Positions 28,504 through 42,081 of a stretch of 64,000 nt of DNA are shown here, one piece after another (the stretch's first letter is position 1; each line of letters begins with the position of its first letter). This DNA is from Halorarum halophilum (GTDB lineage: Archaea > Halobacteriota > Halobacteria > Halobacteriales > Haloferacaceae): contig NZ_CP058529.1 in NCBI RefSeq assembly GCF_013401515.1, forward strand, positions 558,001-622,000, given 5' to 3'. The translations under genes and the position numbers were made by a program. Below the pieces are notes generated by a model. The model was not told the origin of the DNA. It saw only the letters and a program-made list of their open reading frames with translations, and did not search any database.

Positions 28504-29526
28504 ATGACTGACGTAGTCGCGACCACACCGGGGCTGTTCCCGCTCCCCGACTGGGCGAAGGAGGACCTCTCCGACCTGAAAGGCCACCAGAAGGGCGATC
28601 TCGTCTCCGGCGGCGAGGGCGGGGAGATCGCCAGGGCGTACGACCGCGTTCGGAACGAGGTCGTGGACGACCAGACGGACGCCGGCCTCGACCGCTTCGT
28701 CGAGGGGCAGGCCCGCTGGGACGACATGCTGGCCCACCCGCTGACCGTCCACGAGAACGTGGAGACGGGTGGCATCGTCCGGTACTACGACAACAACAAC
28801 TTCTACCGCGACCCCCGGGTGACGGGGGAACTGACGTTCTCCGGCGACGTCGCCGCCGAACTCGAGGCCGCGAGCGGACTGCTCGGCAGCGACGCCGACG
28901 ACCGACTCCAGGCGGTCCTCCCCGGCCCCTACACCCTCGCCGACCTCGCGTCCGACGAGTACTACGGCGACGAGGCGGAGTTCCTCGCCGCCGTCTCGGA
29001 GTTCCTCGCCGGGGAGGTCGAGGCGTTCCCCGCGCACGCGACGCTGTTCCTCCTCGAACCCTCCTTCGTGACGAACGCGCCCGACGACGACCTCGACGAG
29101 CGAGCGAGCGAGGCGATCGACGCCGTCGCGGGAGCGACGGACGCCGACGTGGTCGTCCACACGTACTGGGAGGCGTTCGCGGAGAAGCCGTACGCCCACC
29201 TCATGGACGCCGACGTCGACGCGCTCGGCTTCGACTTCGTCGCCGCGGACCGGGAGGCGAACCTCGAGTGCATCAACGAGTACGGCACGAAGGGGGACGT
29301 CGCCCTCGGCCTCGTCGACGGGCAGAACACGCTCGTCGAGGAACCGGGGACGATCGCCGAACGCGTGAACTGGGTCCGCGAGCAGGTCCCCGGCCAGGAG
29401 TTCGACACGACGTACGTGAGCTACAACACCGAGCCGTTCTACCTGCCGACGAGCAAGCACGTGGAGAAGCTCTCGGCGATCGCGGAGGCCGCTCGCCTGG
29501 CCGCGACCGAGGGGGTGGAGGCGTGA
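28504..29526 (+). CDS. MetE-like protein lacking the zinc ligands (first of pair)
   Basis: 340 residues from ATG 28504. The fold is the MetE/UROD-type barrel (TPGLFPLPDWAKEDLSDL start, then QAVLPGPYTLADLASDEYYG). At the places where MetE carries HxC and a distal Cys, it has VVVHTYWEAF and TYVSYNTEPFYLP, so no Cys ligands are seen. It overlaps the real catalytic-type gene by GTGA (29523-29526). Possibly a partner subunit or a protein that binds a methyl donor. Haloarchaeal annotation usually calls it methionine synthase; that reaction is unproven for this chain. Confidence 0.85.
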   Translation: MTDVVATTPGLFPLPDWAKEDLSDLKGHQKGDLVSGGEGGEIARAYDRVRNEVVDDQTDAGLDRFVEGQARWDDMLAHPLTVHENVETGGIVRYYDNNNFYRDPRVTGELTFSGDVAAELEAASGLLGSDADDRLQAVLPGPYTLADLASDEYYGDEAEFLAAVSEFLAGEVEAFPAHATLFLLEPSFVTNAPDDDLDERASEAIDAVAGATDADVVVHTYWEAFAEKPYAHLMDADVDALGFDFVAADREANLECINEYGTKGDVALGLVDGQNTLVEEPGTIAERVNWVREQVPGQEFDTTYVSYNTEPFYLPTSKHVEKLSAIAEAARLAATEGVEA

Positions 29527-30608
29527 GCCGAAACCCCGCCAACCGCGAGCAGTTCCGGCCCGAGGGACACCCGACCGACCACTTCCTGCTCACCACGGTC
29601 GTCGGCTCGTACCCGAAGCCGAAGTGGCTGAACCGCGCCGGCGATCTCAGCGAGGACCCGGACTCGAAGTTCGACGCCGACGATCTCGCGGAGGCCCACG
29701 ACGACGCGTGTCGGGTCATCACCCACGAGCACGAGCGCGCGGGCCTCGACACCGTCGTGGACGGGGAGATGCGCCGCGAGGAGATGGTGGAGTTCTTCGC
29801 CGAGCGCATCGACGGCTACGAGTTCAATGGCCCCGTGAAGGTGTGGGGCCACAACTACTTCGACAAGCCGTCGGTCGTCGACGACGTTGCGTACGCGGAG
29901 CCGTGGCTGGTCGACGAGTTCGAGTTCACCGACGCCGTCGCGTCCCGCCCGGTGAAGGTGCCGATCACGGGGCCGTACACGCTGGCGAACTGGTCGTTCA
30001 ACGAGGCGTACGACGACAGCGAGGCGCTCTCGTACGACCTGGCTGACCTCGTGAACGAGGAGATCGAGAAGCTGGTCGAGGCAGGCGCGCGCTACATCCA
30101 GATCGACGAGCCCGCGCTGGCGACGACGCCAGACGACCACGCCATCGTCGGCGAGTGTCTCGACCGCATCGTCGCGGGGGTCCCCGAGGACATCCGGATC
30201 GGGCTCCACGTCTGCTACGGCGACTACTCGCGGGTGTACCCCGAGATCAACGACTACCCGATCGACGAGTTCGACGTCGAGCTGTGCAACGGCGACTACG
30301 AACAGATCGAGGTGTTCGCGGACGGCGAGTTCGCGCCGGACCTCGCGCTCGGCGTCGTCGACGCCCACGTCGCCGAGGTCGAACCGGTCGAGGAGATCAA
30401 GGCGAACATCCGGGAGGGCCTGAAGGTCGTCCCGCCGGAGAAGCTCACCGTCTCGCCCGACTGCGGGCTGAAGCTCCTCCCGCGAGAGATCGCCTACGGC
30501 AAGATGGCGAACATGGTGCAGGCGGCGCGCGAACTGGAGGCCGAACTCGACGCGGGCGAGGTAGAGGTCCCGGCGACGACGAGTGGCGCCCCTACCGCGG
30601 ACGACTGA
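29523..30608 (+). CDS. methionine synthase, core-MetE type (second of pair)
   Basis: 361 residues from GTG 29523. Start LLTTVVGSYPKPKWL, then ITHEHERAGLDTVVDGEMRR, VPITGPYTLANWSF and YIQIDEPALATTPDDH. Zinc ligands are complete: H229 and C231 in LHVCYGDYSR, a glutamate near 253 (VELCNGD region) and C314 in VSPDCGLKLLP. It should transfer a methyl group to homocysteine. It is half the length of bacterial MetE and lacks the folate-binding half, like archaeal core-MetE enzymes that use a methylated corrinoid or folate donor (donor not shown here). Confidence 0.92.
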   Translation: MSRNPANREQFRPEGHPTDHFLLTTVVGSYPKPKWLNRAGDLSEDPDSKFDADDLAEAHDDACRVITHEHERAGLDTVVDGEMRREEMVEFFAERIDGYEFNGPVKVWGHNYFDKPSVVDDVAYAEPWLVDEFEFTDAVASRPVKVPITGPYTLANWSFNEAYDDSEALSYDLADLVNEEIEKLVEAGARYIQIDEPALATTPDDHAIVGECLDRIVAGVPEDIRIGLHVCYGDYSRVYPEINDYPIDEFDVELCNGDYEQIEVFADGEFAPDLALGVVDAHVAEVEPVEEIKANIREGLKVVPPEKLTVSPDCGLKLLPREIAYGKMANMVQAARELEAELDAGEVEVPATTSGAPTADD

Positions 30609-37286: not shown

Positions 37287-38471
<1,185 letters not shown>

Positions 38472-38551: not shown

Positions 38552-38749
38552 TTACGCCGCGTTCGCGGCCGCGCTGGCCTTCTTCCGCGTGATGTAGCCC
38601 GCGATCCGGTTTCGGACCGACTTGGACTCGACGTTCGTGAGCGTCGTGACGCTCTCCTTGTTCGTCTCGAAGTCCTGGTTGAACGACTGCGGATACTGCT
38701 CGAGCAGTACCTTCGCGAGCTGCTTGACGTACTTCGGTTTGATCGCCAT
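38552..38749 (-). CDS. rps17e: 30S ribosomal protein S17e
   Basis: 65 residues from ATG 38749. The sequence MAIKPKYVKQLAKVLLEQYP, then DFETNKESVTTLTNVESKSV, then RNRIAGYITRKKAS is diagnostic of archaeal S17e. The two-codon extension to 38755 is unlikely. Located ahead of DUF63, downstream of DUF447. Confidence 0.97.
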   Translation of the reverse strand: MAIKPKYVKQLAKVLLEQYPQSFNQDFETNKESVTTLTNVESKSVRNRIAGYITRKKASAAANAA

Positions 38750-38814: not shown

Positions 38815-39450
38815 TCATCGGCGCTCCCGCCATCCGGTCGCCGCGGAGAGCGATTCGAACGCATCCCGCTCCCGGCGCCCGCCGCATCGCTCCACCACGT
38901 CGGCGAAGTAGACGAGGCGGTCAAGGAGTTCGTCCGTGTCGTAGCCGTCCACGTCGAGCCGTGAGGCCGCCACCGTCGCCTCCACGACGGCGGCGAACCC
39001 CCGGTCGATGGTCCGGACGCCCTCGCATACGACCGAGGACTCGACGGGTCGGAGGTGCCAGTCGATCCACTCGGTGTCCCCGTCCTCGCCGGCACCCACC
39101 TGCTCGACGGCGACTCTGACCCACGCGTCTGCGGAGTCGAGGACGGGCTCGGGCTCCTCGCGGACGGTCACCGCCGCGTCGACGAAGTCCCGGGGGTCCG
39201 TGACGAACTGCACGACGCCCCCGCCCCGCGCCGCGAAGTTCCGGGCGGTTCTTGTCCGGCCCCACGTCCGTGCTCGGACCGGTTCGCTGGCCCGACGGCC
39301 GTCCGCGGCCGGCGCATGGAGTCCCAGGGCCGCGACGTTCCAGAGGTCGTTCGGACCGAGCGTCGCGACGACGGACTCGGTGACGCCCGCGAGGTCGACG
39401 GGCCACTCCGCGTCCGCGACGTCGCCCACATCATGGCCCTCCTCGCTCAC
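38815..39450 (-). CDS. DUF447 family protein (flavin-reductase-like fold)
   Basis: 211 residues from GTG 39450, overlapping the CitG-like gene by GTGA (39447-39450). The core ESVVATLGPNDLWNVAALGL, then RTARNFAARGGGVVQFVTDP and DFVDAAVTVREEPEPVLDSA matches DUF447, an archaeal and methylotroph family with a flavin/FMN-binding-like split barrel. In methylotrophs homologues lie among genes for methanopterin synthesis (recalled). It is the last of the cofD cluster. Confidence 0.85.
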   Translation of the reverse strand: MSEEGHDVGDVADAEWPVDLAGVTESVVATLGPNDLWNVAALGLHAPAADGRRASEPVRARTWGRTRTARNFAARGGGVVQFVTDPRDFVDAAVTVREEPEPVLDSADAWVRVAVEQVGAGEDGDTEWIDWHLRPVESSVVCEGVRTIDRGFAAVVEATVAASRLDVDGYDTDELLDRLVYFADVVERCGGRRERDAFESLSAATGWRERR

Positions 39451-40274
39451 GGCTCCACCCCCCGTTCGAGCGCGACGAACAGCGCCGCGGCCGTGAGGTC
39501 GGCCGTCGTCCCCGGGTTGATCCCCCGGGCGACCAGTTCGTCGGCCCACTCCTCCGCCTCGGCCCGCGAGTCGATCCTCCCGGCGCGCTGCCACACCTCG
39601 CGTGCGACCGTCTCCCCGTGCTGCGTCCGGACGAGCGTGTCCTCGGTCTCCGCGAGCAGATCGAGGAACGCCCTCGCGGCGCGGTCGGTGATGGGCCCCT
39701 CGTCCGCCGCGATCGATTCGGCGGCACGGAACGTTCGTGGGAACCCTTCGTGCCACTCGCGGGCGTTCGCGTCGTCCTCCGAGCGTGCCATCACGTCCAG
39801 GAGGGTGAGGTCGCGTTCGCGGAGCGTCGGGACCGCGTCGGCGCCCCGGTGGACGTCCAGCGCGTCCATCCCCTTCGGCGGGTCGCCGACGGCGACGTCG
39901 ACGTGCTCGAACGCGCGGTAGAAGCCGGCGGCGTCCGCCACGGTCGTCGACTCGCACACCTCCCCGACGCCGCGAGGCGAGAGGTCGCCGGCGGTCGCGG
40001 CCTTCACCAGCGGGACGAGGAGGAGCAGGCAGCCAAACTGCGTGTTCCCGCCGGACTGCTCGCTCATTCCGAGCACTGCGGTCTCGAACGCATCCCCAAT
40101 GGGTGCGCCGTCCTCGGCGAGTTCGAGCCCCTCGCGCGCGCCGACTGCCCCCGCGAGGAAGTGTTCGAAGCGGAGCGTCTCGAGGTCGCAGCGACGGTCC
40201 ACGTTCCCCGGTTTCGGGGTCCCCGCGACCTCGAGCAGCAGCGCGAGTTCGGCGTTCGCCGCCGGCCCCCTCAC
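39447..40274 (-). CDS. triphosphoribosyl-dephospho-CoA synthase-like (CitG family)
   Basis: 275 residues from GTG 40274, coupled by GTGA to the gene before it (40271-40274). CitG features: AGTPKPGNVDRRCDLETLRF, then GMSEQSGGNTQFGCLLLLVP, and a late GINPGTTADLTAAALFVALE. CitG transfers a ribosyl-phosphate unit in citrate lyase prosthetic-group synthesis, but archaea lack that enzyme. Archaeal and methylotroph homologues are linked with tetrahydromethanopterin-type genes, so another (tri)phosphoribosyl transfer is likely. Exact reaction unknown. Confidence 0.88.
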   Translation of the reverse strand: MRGPAANAELALLLEVAGTPKPGNVDRRCDLETLRFEHFLAGAVGAREGLELAEDGAPIGDAFETAVLGMSEQSGGNTQFGCLLLLVPLVKAATAGDLSPRGVGEVCESTTVADAAGFYRAFEHVDVAVGDPPKGMDALDVHRGADAVPTLRERDLTLLDVMARSEDDANAREWHEGFPRTFRAAESIAADEGPITDRAARAFLDLLAETEDTLVRTQHGETVAREVWQRAGRIDSRAEAEEWADELVARGINPGTTADLTAAALFVALERGVEP

Positions 40275-41092
40275 CGCCGGACCTCCCGCCCCGACGCCGA
40301 CGGTCGCGGTCGCCCGCCTCCTTCCTCTCCTCCTCCGCCACCCTCTCCACTGTTCTCGGAGAACCACTCGTCGACGGCCCGCCGGACCTGCCGGAGCACG
40401 CACGGGTCGTCGCTCGGCCGGCCGACGCTCACTGCGTCGGCGCCGTACGCGAAGTACTCCCGCGCCGCCTCCGCATTTCGGACGCCGTTGTTGGCGACGA
40501 GGAAGGTGTCGGGCGCCGCGTCGGCCACCTCCGCGATGATCCCCTCCGAATCCATCGCGTCGACGTGTACTGCGTCCGCGCCGGCGGCCGCGAGCGCGCG
40601 AGCCGTCTCAGGGAGGTCGATGCCCGGGACCTCGGCGCGGACCTTCACCGAAACGAGGGCGCCGGTCTCGCTCGCGGCCGCGACGTACTCCGCGAGTCGG
40701 TCGGTGTCACGGAGCAGCGTCTCGCCGCAGCCGACGTCACAGAGCTCCGCCTGACGACAGTGGGCGTTCACCTCGAGGATCGCGTCGTGTTCGGCACAGA
40801 TGCGCCCGGCCTCCCGGACCGGACCCGCCGTCGCGCTCCGGACGTTCACGGCCGGCCGGAGGTCGGCCCCCGCGAGCGCGGCGAGTTCGTCGTCGATCCA
40901 CCCGAGCGGATCGGGTGGGAGGAACTCGGTCCGGTCGCGGTCGGCGACCATCTCCCGGGCGGCGTCCCTGCTCGGTCCGTCGAGGGCGATGCCGCCGAGG
41001 AACGCCGCGCCGGCGAACCCCTCACCCCGTCGCGCCCACTCGTGGTCGGACTCGCCCGAGAGCGACGCGAGCGCCACGCGGGGCTCGAACAT
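40271..41092 (-). CDS. tRNA-dihydrouridine synthase/DHOD-like flavoprotein
   Basis: 273 residues from ATG 41092, sharing one base with the cofD stop. A TIM-barrel flavin enzyme: VALASLSGESDHEWARRGEG start, ILEVNAHCRQAELCDVGCGE (Cys-bearing loop), SVKVRAEVPGIDLPETARAL, and VANNGVRNAEAAREYFAYGA followed by DAVSVGR. It has the Dus-like catalytic loop with the NAHC pattern but lacks the RNA-binding C-terminal domain. With CitG and DUF447 genes it probably works on a cofactor, not on tRNA (inference). Confidence 0.85.
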   Translation of the reverse strand: MFEPRVALASLSGESDHEWARRGEGFAGAAFLGGIALDGPSRDAAREMVADRDRTEFLPPDPLGWIDDELAALAGADLRPAVNVRSATAGPVREAGRICAEHDAILEVNAHCRQAELCDVGCGETLLRDTDRLAEYVAAASETGALVSVKVRAEVPGIDLPETARALAAAGADAVHVDAMDSEGIIAEVADAAPDTFLVANNGVRNAEAAREYFAYGADAVSVGRPSDDPCVLRQVRRAVDEWFSENSGEGGGGGEEGGGRPRPSASGREVRR

Positions 41093-42081
41093 CAGACGGC
41101 CTCCAGCGCGGCCTCGCAGGCGCGGGCGACGCGCTCCGCGTCCGCCTCGTCGTCGATCCGGGTGTCGGTCCGGACGGTCGGTCGGTCGAGGTCCGTCCCG
41201 TCCTCGTCGTCGAGCACGAACGCGTCGGCGAAGGGGTACGCCTCGGCGACGCCCGCGGTGCTCGGCTCGTAGCCGATGCCCCGCATGAGGTCGGGGGCCG
41301 GCCCCGAGAACGCCTCGTCCTCGACGAAGGGGGAGACTGCGACCACGCGCGTGTCGCGCAGTGCGTCCTCTATTCCGGGGACGGCGAGCATCGGACCGAT
41401 GCTGGTGACCGGGTTCGATGGGCCGACGATCACGTCGTCCGCGAGGGCCTCGAGCGCCGCGTCGGCCGGGGTCGCCTCCACCGCGCCGCGGAACTCCACG
41501 TCCTCGACGGTCGGCTCTCCGCGCTCGGCTACCCAGAACTCCTGGAAGTGCAGTTCGCCGTCGGGCGTGTGGACGATGCTCGCCACGGGGTCTTCGCTCA
41601 TCGGAACGAGGTCGACGGCCAGGTCGAACGCGTCCGCGAGCGTCCGCGTGACCTCGGTGAGCGTGTGGCCCTCGTCGAGCAGCGAGGTGCGGGTGACGTG
41701 GACCGCGCGGTCGCGGTCGCCGATCTCCATGAACTCCGCGACCCCGGAGAAGCGGCGCCAGCGCGCGATGTCACGTCCGGCGGTCTGCGCCTCGTCTGGG
41801 AGGTACCGCGGGCCGCCTTCGAGGCCGGCGGCCTCGGCCAGGCGCGAGAGTTCCCGGTGGGTCTCGGTCGTGTCGTCGGTGATCCCCCACCACCGTTCGC
41901 GGTCGAGGACGCCGCCGCCGGCGAACAGCACCGTGTCGATGTCCGGGCAGACGAGGTGCCCGCCGAGTTCCACGTCGTCGCCGGTGTTGCCGACGACGAC
42001 GGTGTCCTCGGGGGCGAAGACGGGGGCGGCACCCTCCAGCAGCTTCGGCGTGCCGGTGCCGCCGGCGAGGAACGTGGCCAT
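41092..42081 (-). CDS. cofD: 2-phospho-L-lactate transferase (coenzyme F420)
   Basis: 329 residues from ATG 42081. CofD motifs: [20 protein letters not shown], then [20 protein letters not shown] and [14 protein letters not shown], and [20 protein letters not shown]. The enzyme transfers the phospholactyl (or phosphoenolpyruvyl) group from an activated donor to Fo to give F420-0. It is the first gene of the minus-strand cluster with Dus-like, CitG-like and DUF447 genes, all with overlapping ends. cofE and cofGH are not in the window. Confidence 0.97.

What the first reader, a model, noticed from the sequence alone, without database searches (positions are those of the whole stretch)
38815..42081. 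cofD linked with Dus-like, CitG-like and DUF447 genes
Four minus-strand genes overlap end to start. CofD makes F420; DUF447, CitG-like and Dus-like proteins are recalled from methylotroph methanopterin gene clusters, yet haloarchaea are not known to use methanopterin. The set therefore may make or modify an unrecognised cofactor, perhaps an F420 or folate variant, with CitG doing a phosphoribosyl-type transfer and the Dus-like flavoprotein a reduction.
Basis: partly seen in the sequence, partly recalled or inferred. Interest (0 to 1): 0.6.

Follow-up and report, generated by a model that had tools for sequence, protein, structure and literature searches.

The report
Methyl-pterin pathway genes in haloarchaea
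Two of the four genes (CitG-like and DUF447) belong to a gene set that salt-loving archaea keep or lose as one unit with a methanopterin-type first enzyme, an F420-dependent reductase and, where checked, a methionine-synthase subunit, which suggests these organisms make an overlooked methanopterin-like carrier for making methionine, beside ordinary folate.

Summary
In detail: four overlapping minus-strand genes, cofD, a Dus-like flavoprotein, a CitG-like protein and DUF447. The grouping needs redrawing. CitG+DUF447 follow beta-RFAP synthase, the committing enzyme of methanopterin-type pterins, not cofD. In 116 haloarchaeal genomes CitG, DUF447, RFAP synthase and the Mer orthologue (F420-dependent methylene-pterin reductase) occur together in 113 and are all missing from the same three (at least two independent losses). 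In two of these, cofD and Dus remain and CitG-DUF447 is cleanly gone from the ancestral locus; all three keep Mch. A complete losing genome keeps folate synthesis but also lacks the pterin-binding half of split MetE. In Halobellus limi, mer-DUF447-RFAP synthase-MetE1-MetE2 lie in one operon-like run. Bacterial tetrahydromethanopterin clusters carry the CitG homologue beside mch and fae. Best explanation: haloarchaea make an RFAP-derived, methanopterin-like carrier that takes a methyl group from Mer (with F420H2) to split MetE for methionine synthesis, alongside folate. Papers I could read assign these enzymes to tetrahydrofolate, doubt the RFAP homologue, or call the role of Mer and Mch unclear. 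The carrier has not been shown chemically. The Dus-like role stays open.

The parts
38815..39450 (-). DUF447 protein, predicted FMN-binding split-barrel enzyme of the pterin set
   Evidence: PF04289 74 bits and PF20766 60 bits. Predicted model matches FMN-bound DUF447 structures 2iml (Z 18.4) and 2nr4 (Z 18.2). Lost together with CitG, RFAP synthase and Mer.
39447..40274 (-). CitG-like protein, predicted ribosyl-type transferase of the pterin set (homologue of the CitG gene in bacterial H4MPT clusters)
   Evidence: PF01874 202 bits; CitG/MdcB equivalogs not met. Archaeal profile scores H4MPT-cluster CitG 112-113 bits and E. coli CitG 52. Fold match 3h9p Z 24.2.
40271..41092 (-). Dus-like TIM-barrel flavoprotein (MJ0144-type), role open; stays with cofD in genomes that lost the pterin set
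   Evidence: PF01207 26.7 bits, TIGR00736 123.5 bits below cut-off. Retained beside cofD in G008 and G060.
41092..42081 (-). cofD, 2-phospho-L-lactate transferase of F420 synthesis
   Evidence: TIGR01819 equivalog 395 bits.
28504..29526 (+). MetE1, N-terminal pterin-binding half of split methionine synthase; proposed user of the carrier
   Evidence: Pfam Meth_synt_1 best hit, 50 bits; 54% identical to Halobellus MetE1 from the mer-DUF447-RFAP run; absent from G060.
29523..30593 (+). MetE2, catalytic half of split methionine synthase
   Evidence: Meth_synt_2 192 bits; NF003317 532 bits; 70% identical to Halobellus MetE2.
38579..38749 (-). ribosomal protein S17e, conserved flank that marks the clean loss in G008 and G060
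   Evidence: 72% identity match; in G008 and G060 S17e directly follows Dus.

Best explanation
CitG-like and DUF447 are biosynthetic enzymes of an RFAP-derived, tetrahydromethanopterin-like C1 carrier that haloarchaea make in addition to folate. Proposed flow: the RFAP synthase homologue (G000:C1:1973759-1974706) joins p-aminobenzoate and PRPP; the product is condensed with the pterin; DUF447, with FMN, carries out a reduction (my guess: opening the ribofuranose to ribitol); CitG-like adds an alpha-linked ribosyl group. The finished carrier takes a methylene group that Mer (G000:C1:2184093-2185049) reduces to methyl with F420H2, and split MetE passes the methyl to homocysteine. cofD is a neighbour because Mer needs F420. 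SHOWN: gene content, co-loss, operon-like linkage, homology, and an FMN-type fold for DUF447. INFERRED: that the product is a pterin with a ribofuranosyl-aniline core, the order of steps, and the individual reactions of CitG and DUF447. The Dus-like protein is not assigned.
For: (1) 116 haloarchaeal genomes: RFAP synthase, CitG and DUF447 each in 113, absent from the same three, G008, G060 and G095. The Mer orthologue is absent from the same three: no hit in G008 and G060; G095 has only a weak paralogue, E 1e-38, while the best hit in every other genome is 2e-79 or better. G095's genus mates have all of these genes, so there were at least two independent losses. (2) Mch is kept in all three; cofD and Dus are kept in G008 and G060. 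CitG-DUF447 is cleanly missing between Dus and S17e there. (3) Complete genome G060 lacks MetE1 but keeps a MetE2 core and keeps FolD, FolP, FolC, GlyA and ThyA. (4) Halobellus limi plasmid: mer-DUF447-RFAP synthase-MetE1-MetE2, one direction, nearly touching. (5) G018: RFAP synthase close to cofE-mer. (6) Bacterial H4MPT clusters: CitG homologue between a RimK-type ligase, mch and fae, with RFAP synthase. (7) Haloarchaeal RFAP scores (about 150 and 175) equal those of the bacterial H4MPT-cluster enzymes (157-163 and 169-186), with shared SGTQ, RSG and GQSSWGP motifs. (8) Control genomes: CitG, DUF447 and RFAP synthase all occur in Sulfolobus, which has no F420 cofD hit and is described as using sulfopterin (PMC3697235).
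Against: No methanopterin-like compound is reported from haloarchaea in what I could read; White 1988, as cited by PMC8305020, reports tetrahydrofolate there. Haloarchaeal RFAP misses the strict equivalog NF040726 (176 against 328). Mch, a C1-carrier enzyme, does not follow the set. Only two independent losses support the co-loss, both in small genomes. The condensing and late-tailoring enzymes were not identified. Outside Halobacteria agreement is imperfect: G017, G037 and G045 have no DUF447 hit and G082 no CitG hit, perhaps from incomplete drafts. MetE1 absence was tested in one genome only.
Confidence: 0.62

Rival explanations
1. Haloarchaeal Mer and MetE use tetrahydrofolate, and the RFAP homologue, CitG and DUF447 modify that folate or make an unrelated compound; co-loss reflects shared loss of methionine synthesis in reduced genomes.
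For: PMC8305020 assigns HVO_1937 and HVO_2573 to tetrahydrofolate and doubts the RFAP homologue. Mch stays without the set. Losing genomes are small, 2.1-2.4 Mb.
Against: Halobellus places DUF447 and RFAP synthase between mer and metE. Equally small genomes G098 (1.9 Mb) and G170 (2.2 Mb) keep the whole set. G060 keeps folate genes while losing Mer and MetE1.
Confidence: 0.22
2. The four genes form one F420-variant pathway, with Dus-like, CitG and DUF447 modifying F420.
For: Conserved order cofD-Dus-CitG-DUF447 in haloarchaea and a few other lineages. Mer uses F420.
Against: CitG and DUF447 are lost with cofD kept. Sulfolobus has CitG, DUF447 and RFAP but no F420 cofD hit. CitG sits near cofD in only 25 of 84 genomes.
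Confidence: 0.07
3. CitG-like makes the triphosphoribosyl-dephospho-CoA prosthetic group for a citrate or malonate lyase.
For: Pfam family CitG; automatic annotation of relatives.
Against: Below CitG and MdcB equivalog cut-offs; closer to H4MPT-cluster CitG (112-113 bits) than to E. coli CitG (52); neighbour is DUF447 rather than citX or a lyase.
Confidence: 0.03
4. The Dus-like protein is a tRNA dihydrouridine synthase that is only a passenger in this cluster.
For: Pfam Dus match; stays with cofD in genomes that lost the set; absent from 36 CitG-bearing genomes.
Against: DusB equivalog far from met; beside CitG in 41 of 51 genomes with both; in methanogens it carries a methanogenesis marker 9 domain.
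Confidence: 0.3

Closest known systems
Tetrahydromethanopterin biosynthesis of methanogens and methylotrophic bacteria (RFAP synthase, CitG-like gene, DUF447)
   Same: RFAP synthase subfamily, CitG homologue, DUF447 (archaea), Mer and Mch are all present in haloarchaea; RFAP scores equal those of bacterial H4MPT clusters.
   Different: No methanogenesis use; folate made as well; Mch not tied to the set; proposed use is methionine synthesis by split MetE; late tailoring enzymes not identified.
Sulfopterin and other modified folates of thermophilic archaea
   Same: Sulfolobus control genome has RFAP, CitG and DUF447 without F420 cofD; split MetE is also typical of Thermoprotei (PMC7857596).
   Different: Haloarchaea also have F420, Mer and a full folate pathway.
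Split MetE of archaea (PMC7857596)
   Same: Window holds MetE1-MetE2; [quoted passage not shown]
   Different: Here the gene context points to an RFAP-derived methyl pterin as the donor in haloarchaea.
F420 biosynthesis (CofD)
   Same: cofD in the window is a true CofD by equivalog.
   Different: CitG and DUF447 are not part of it.

Membership tests
RFAP-dependent (methanopterin-type) pterin synthesis | beta-RFAP synthase in the genome | tested here: inconclusive
   Subfamily TIGR00144 met (150 bits, cut-off 113.5); strict equivalog NF040726 not met (176, cut-off 328), but bacterial H4MPT-cluster enzymes miss it too (169-186).
RFAP-dependent (methanopterin-type) pterin synthesis | CitG homologue and DUF447 present and co-inherited with RFAP synthase | tested here: met
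   113 of 116 with all three, 3 of 116 with none.
RFAP-dependent (methanopterin-type) pterin synthesis | F420-dependent methylene-H4MPT reductase (Mer) | tested here: met
   Window genome Mer passes NF002619 (437, cut-off 276) but not TIGR03555 (290, cut-off 348.7); co-lost with the set.
RFAP-dependent (methanopterin-type) pterin synthesis | Late tailoring enzymes (ligases, methylases) and condensing enzyme | not tested
   Not searched in the window genome.
RFAP-dependent (methanopterin-type) pterin synthesis | Carrier with ribofuranosyl-aniline core in cells | not testable with these tools
   Needs LC-MS.
CitG/MdcB for citrate or malonate lyase | Equivalog score | tested here: not met
   28 bits against 282 (MdcB), 19 against 272 (CitG).
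tRNA dihydrouridine synthase (Dus) | Dus domain and DusB equivalog | tested here: inconclusive
   Pfam Dus met (26.7, cut-off 20.4); DusB 22.8 against 293; TIGR00736 123.5 against 218.7. No tRNA data.
F420 CofD | Equivalog TIGR01819 | tested here: met
   394.7 bits, cut-off 257.45.
DUF447 FMN-binding split-barrel proteins | Pfam domains and FMN-type split-barrel fold | tested here: met
   PF04289 and PF20766; model matches FMN-bound 2iml Z 18.4, 3.1 A over 182 residues, and 2nr4 Z 18.2. FMN binding of this protein itself not tested.

The most novel reading that the evidence does not exclude
Haloarchaea run two separate C1 carriers: folate for methylene and formyl chemistry, and an undescribed RFAP-derived methyl pterin, made with CitG-like and DUF447, that links F420-dependent Mer to split MetE for methionine.
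Probability: 0.5. Interest if true: 0.82.

Novelty: new variant of a known kind. Interest (0 to 1): 0.7.

Why it matters
Haloarchaea are described as folate users that lack methanopterin-specific enzymes (PMC8305020), and the role of their Mer and Mch is called unclear (PMC7599335). If true, a methanopterin-type carrier survived the methanogen-to-halophile transition and was narrowed to methionine synthesis. It would explain why haloarchaea keep Mer and an RFAP synthase homologue. It would also give CitG-like and DUF447, found in nearly all methanogens sampled, a pathway to be tested in genetically easy, aerobic Haloferax volcanii, where the missing steps of methanopterin synthesis could be worked out.

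Tried and rejected
F420-variant pathway: rejected because CitG/DUF447 and cofD part company. Mch as the partner of the set: rejected, present in 116 of 116 including the losers. Classical CitG for citrate lyase: cut-offs not met. A tree of CitG was uninformative because of long branches. The fold search gave CitG a weak likeness to ADP-ribosyl-hydrolases (Z about 4), not significant. Naming the losing genomes by a genome-contig scan with G060 CofD failed: they did not appear. White 1988 and the de Crecy-Lagard folate review are not held. No held paper links DUF447 or CitG with methanopterin. Two rows of the RFAP alignment (L020, L021) were translated in the wrong frame and are ignored.

Full report
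OBSERVATION. Families: cofD passes the F420 equivalog. Dus-like passes Pfam Dus only and stays under TIGR00736. CitG-like is strong in Pfam but misses the CitG and MdcB equivalogs. DUF447 has both Pfam halves. The order cofD-Dus-CitG-DUF447 is present in 13 of 13 named haloarchaeal cofD loci and is not seen around 31 other archaeal cofD loci, mostly Archaeoglobi.

WHO BELONGS WITH WHOM. In 90 genomes drawn evenly from the phylum, CitG and DUF447 lie within 2 kb of each other in 74 of 84 genomes that have both, but CitG lies within 10 kb of cofD in only 25 of 84. Dus-like is beside CitG in 41 of 51, yet 36 genomes with CitG have no Dus-like hit. Among the 14 control genomes, CitG, DUF447 and RFAP synthase all occur in M. 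jannaschii, Hfx. volcanii, S. acidocaldarius and M. acetivorans; Sulfolobus has no F420 cofD hit. So CitG and DUF447 follow RFAP synthase rather than F420.

CO-LOSS. In 116 haloarchaeal genomes RFAP synthase, CitG and DUF447 are each found in 113 and each missing from G008, G060 and G095. The Mer orthologue is missing from the same three: G008 and G060 have no hit, and G095 has only a paralogue-level hit. G008 and G060 are one genus; G095 sits in another genus whose other sampled members have every gene, so there are at least two independent losses. Small size alone does not explain it: G098 (1.9 Mb) and G170 (2.2 Mb) keep everything. Mch is in all 116. In G008 and G060 cofD and Dus remain, and CitG-DUF447 is missing exactly between Dus and S17e at the ancestral locus.

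WHAT ELSE WENT, AND WHAT STAYED. I read the complete 2,085,946-base G060 genome. tblastn with haloarchaeal queries finds no Mer, RFAP synthase, CitG or DUF447. The catalytic half of split MetE is present (47% identity), but the N-terminal pterin-binding half is absent. FolD, FolP, FolC, GlyA and ThyA are present. The remaining MetE2 scores 328 bits against 532 for the window's, under the cut-off of 406. Folate therefore stayed while the methyl branch went together with CitG, DUF447 and RFAP synthase.

OPERON EVIDENCE. On a Halobellus limi plasmid mer, DUF447, RFAP synthase, MetE1 and MetE2 follow one another in one direction with overlapping or nearly touching ends, next to an F420 reductase gene. 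In G018 RFAP synthase lies near cofE-mer. The window itself carries MetE1-MetE2 at 28504-30593. In the bacterial H4MPT clusters of Azospirillum and Paraburkholderia, a CitG homologue sits between a RimK-type ligase, mch and fae, with RFAP synthase a few genes away. The literature calls the gene next to mch in methanotrophs orf5 (PMC3615186); that it is this CitG homologue is my inference.

ENZYMES. The haloarchaeal RFAP homologue passes the TIGR00144 subfamily but not the strict equivalog; the RFAP enzymes of the two bacterial H4MPT clusters do exactly the same, and the conserved motifs are shared. PMC8305020 doubts this homologue and assigns Mer and Mch to tetrahydrofolate. An archaeal CitG profile scores the H4MPT-cluster CitG at 112-113 bits and E. 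coli CitG at 52. The DUF447 model (pLDDT 73, pTM 0.66) matches the FMN-bound DUF447 structures 2iml and 2nr4 at Z about 18 and a Rhodopirellula protein at Z 16. The CitG model matches 3h9p at Z 24.

MECHANISM. Shown: gene content, co-loss, linkage, homology and fold. Inferred: a pterin carrier with a ribofuranosyl-aniline core; DUF447 as a flavin-dependent reductase (perhaps ring opening of the ribose to ribitol); CitG-like as the alpha-ribosyl transferase, by analogy to the CitG reaction and to the ribosyl group of methanopterin (general knowledge). Mer would load the methyl group with F420H2, and split MetE would use it. [quoted passage not shown] the Hikarchaeia authors call the role of mer and mch in haloarchaea unclear (PMC7599335).

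LIMITS. No carrier has been shown chemically. Only two independent losses were seen in 116 genomes. MetE1 was tested in a single losing genome, and cofD in G095 was not reached. Agreement outside Halobacteria is high but not perfect. The role of the Dus-like protein is unresolved; its methanogen counterpart carries a methanogenesis marker 9 domain, and in losing haloarchaea it stays with cofD.

Noticed in passing
L047:6170-7309 (G032) and window 40271-41092: The methanogen counterpart of the Dus-like protein, upstream of CitG-DUF447, carries a C-terminal methanogenesis marker 9 domain (TIGR03277, 163 bits) that the haloarchaeal protein lacks.
   Followed up: partly
L039:5877-7169, L042:11777-13003, L044:5113-6291, L045:9802-10944, L051:2473-3660: A protein that looks from its sequence like an HD-domain phosphohydrolase ('VHDHIEV', 'IHDYIKL') lies next to or near cofD in many archaea, including genomes that lost CitG-DUF447. 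No family search was run on it.
   Followed up: no
L044:4551-5102 and L046:4190-4744: Genes that look like UbiX (flavin prenyltransferase), with UbiD-like genes beside them, lie near cofD in two lineages. No family search was run.
   Followed up: no
L102:4817-9050 (G018): RFAP synthase, a phosphoesterase-like gene, cofE and mer are clustered, a second place where pterin and F420 genes meet.
   Followed up: partly
window 37287-38453: DUF63 membrane protein gene downstream of the cluster, beyond S17e (121 bits).
   Followed up: no
G060:C1:1839618-1840703: Lone MetE catalytic half without its N-terminal partner; it may act as a core methionine synthase with another methyl donor.
   Followed up: partly
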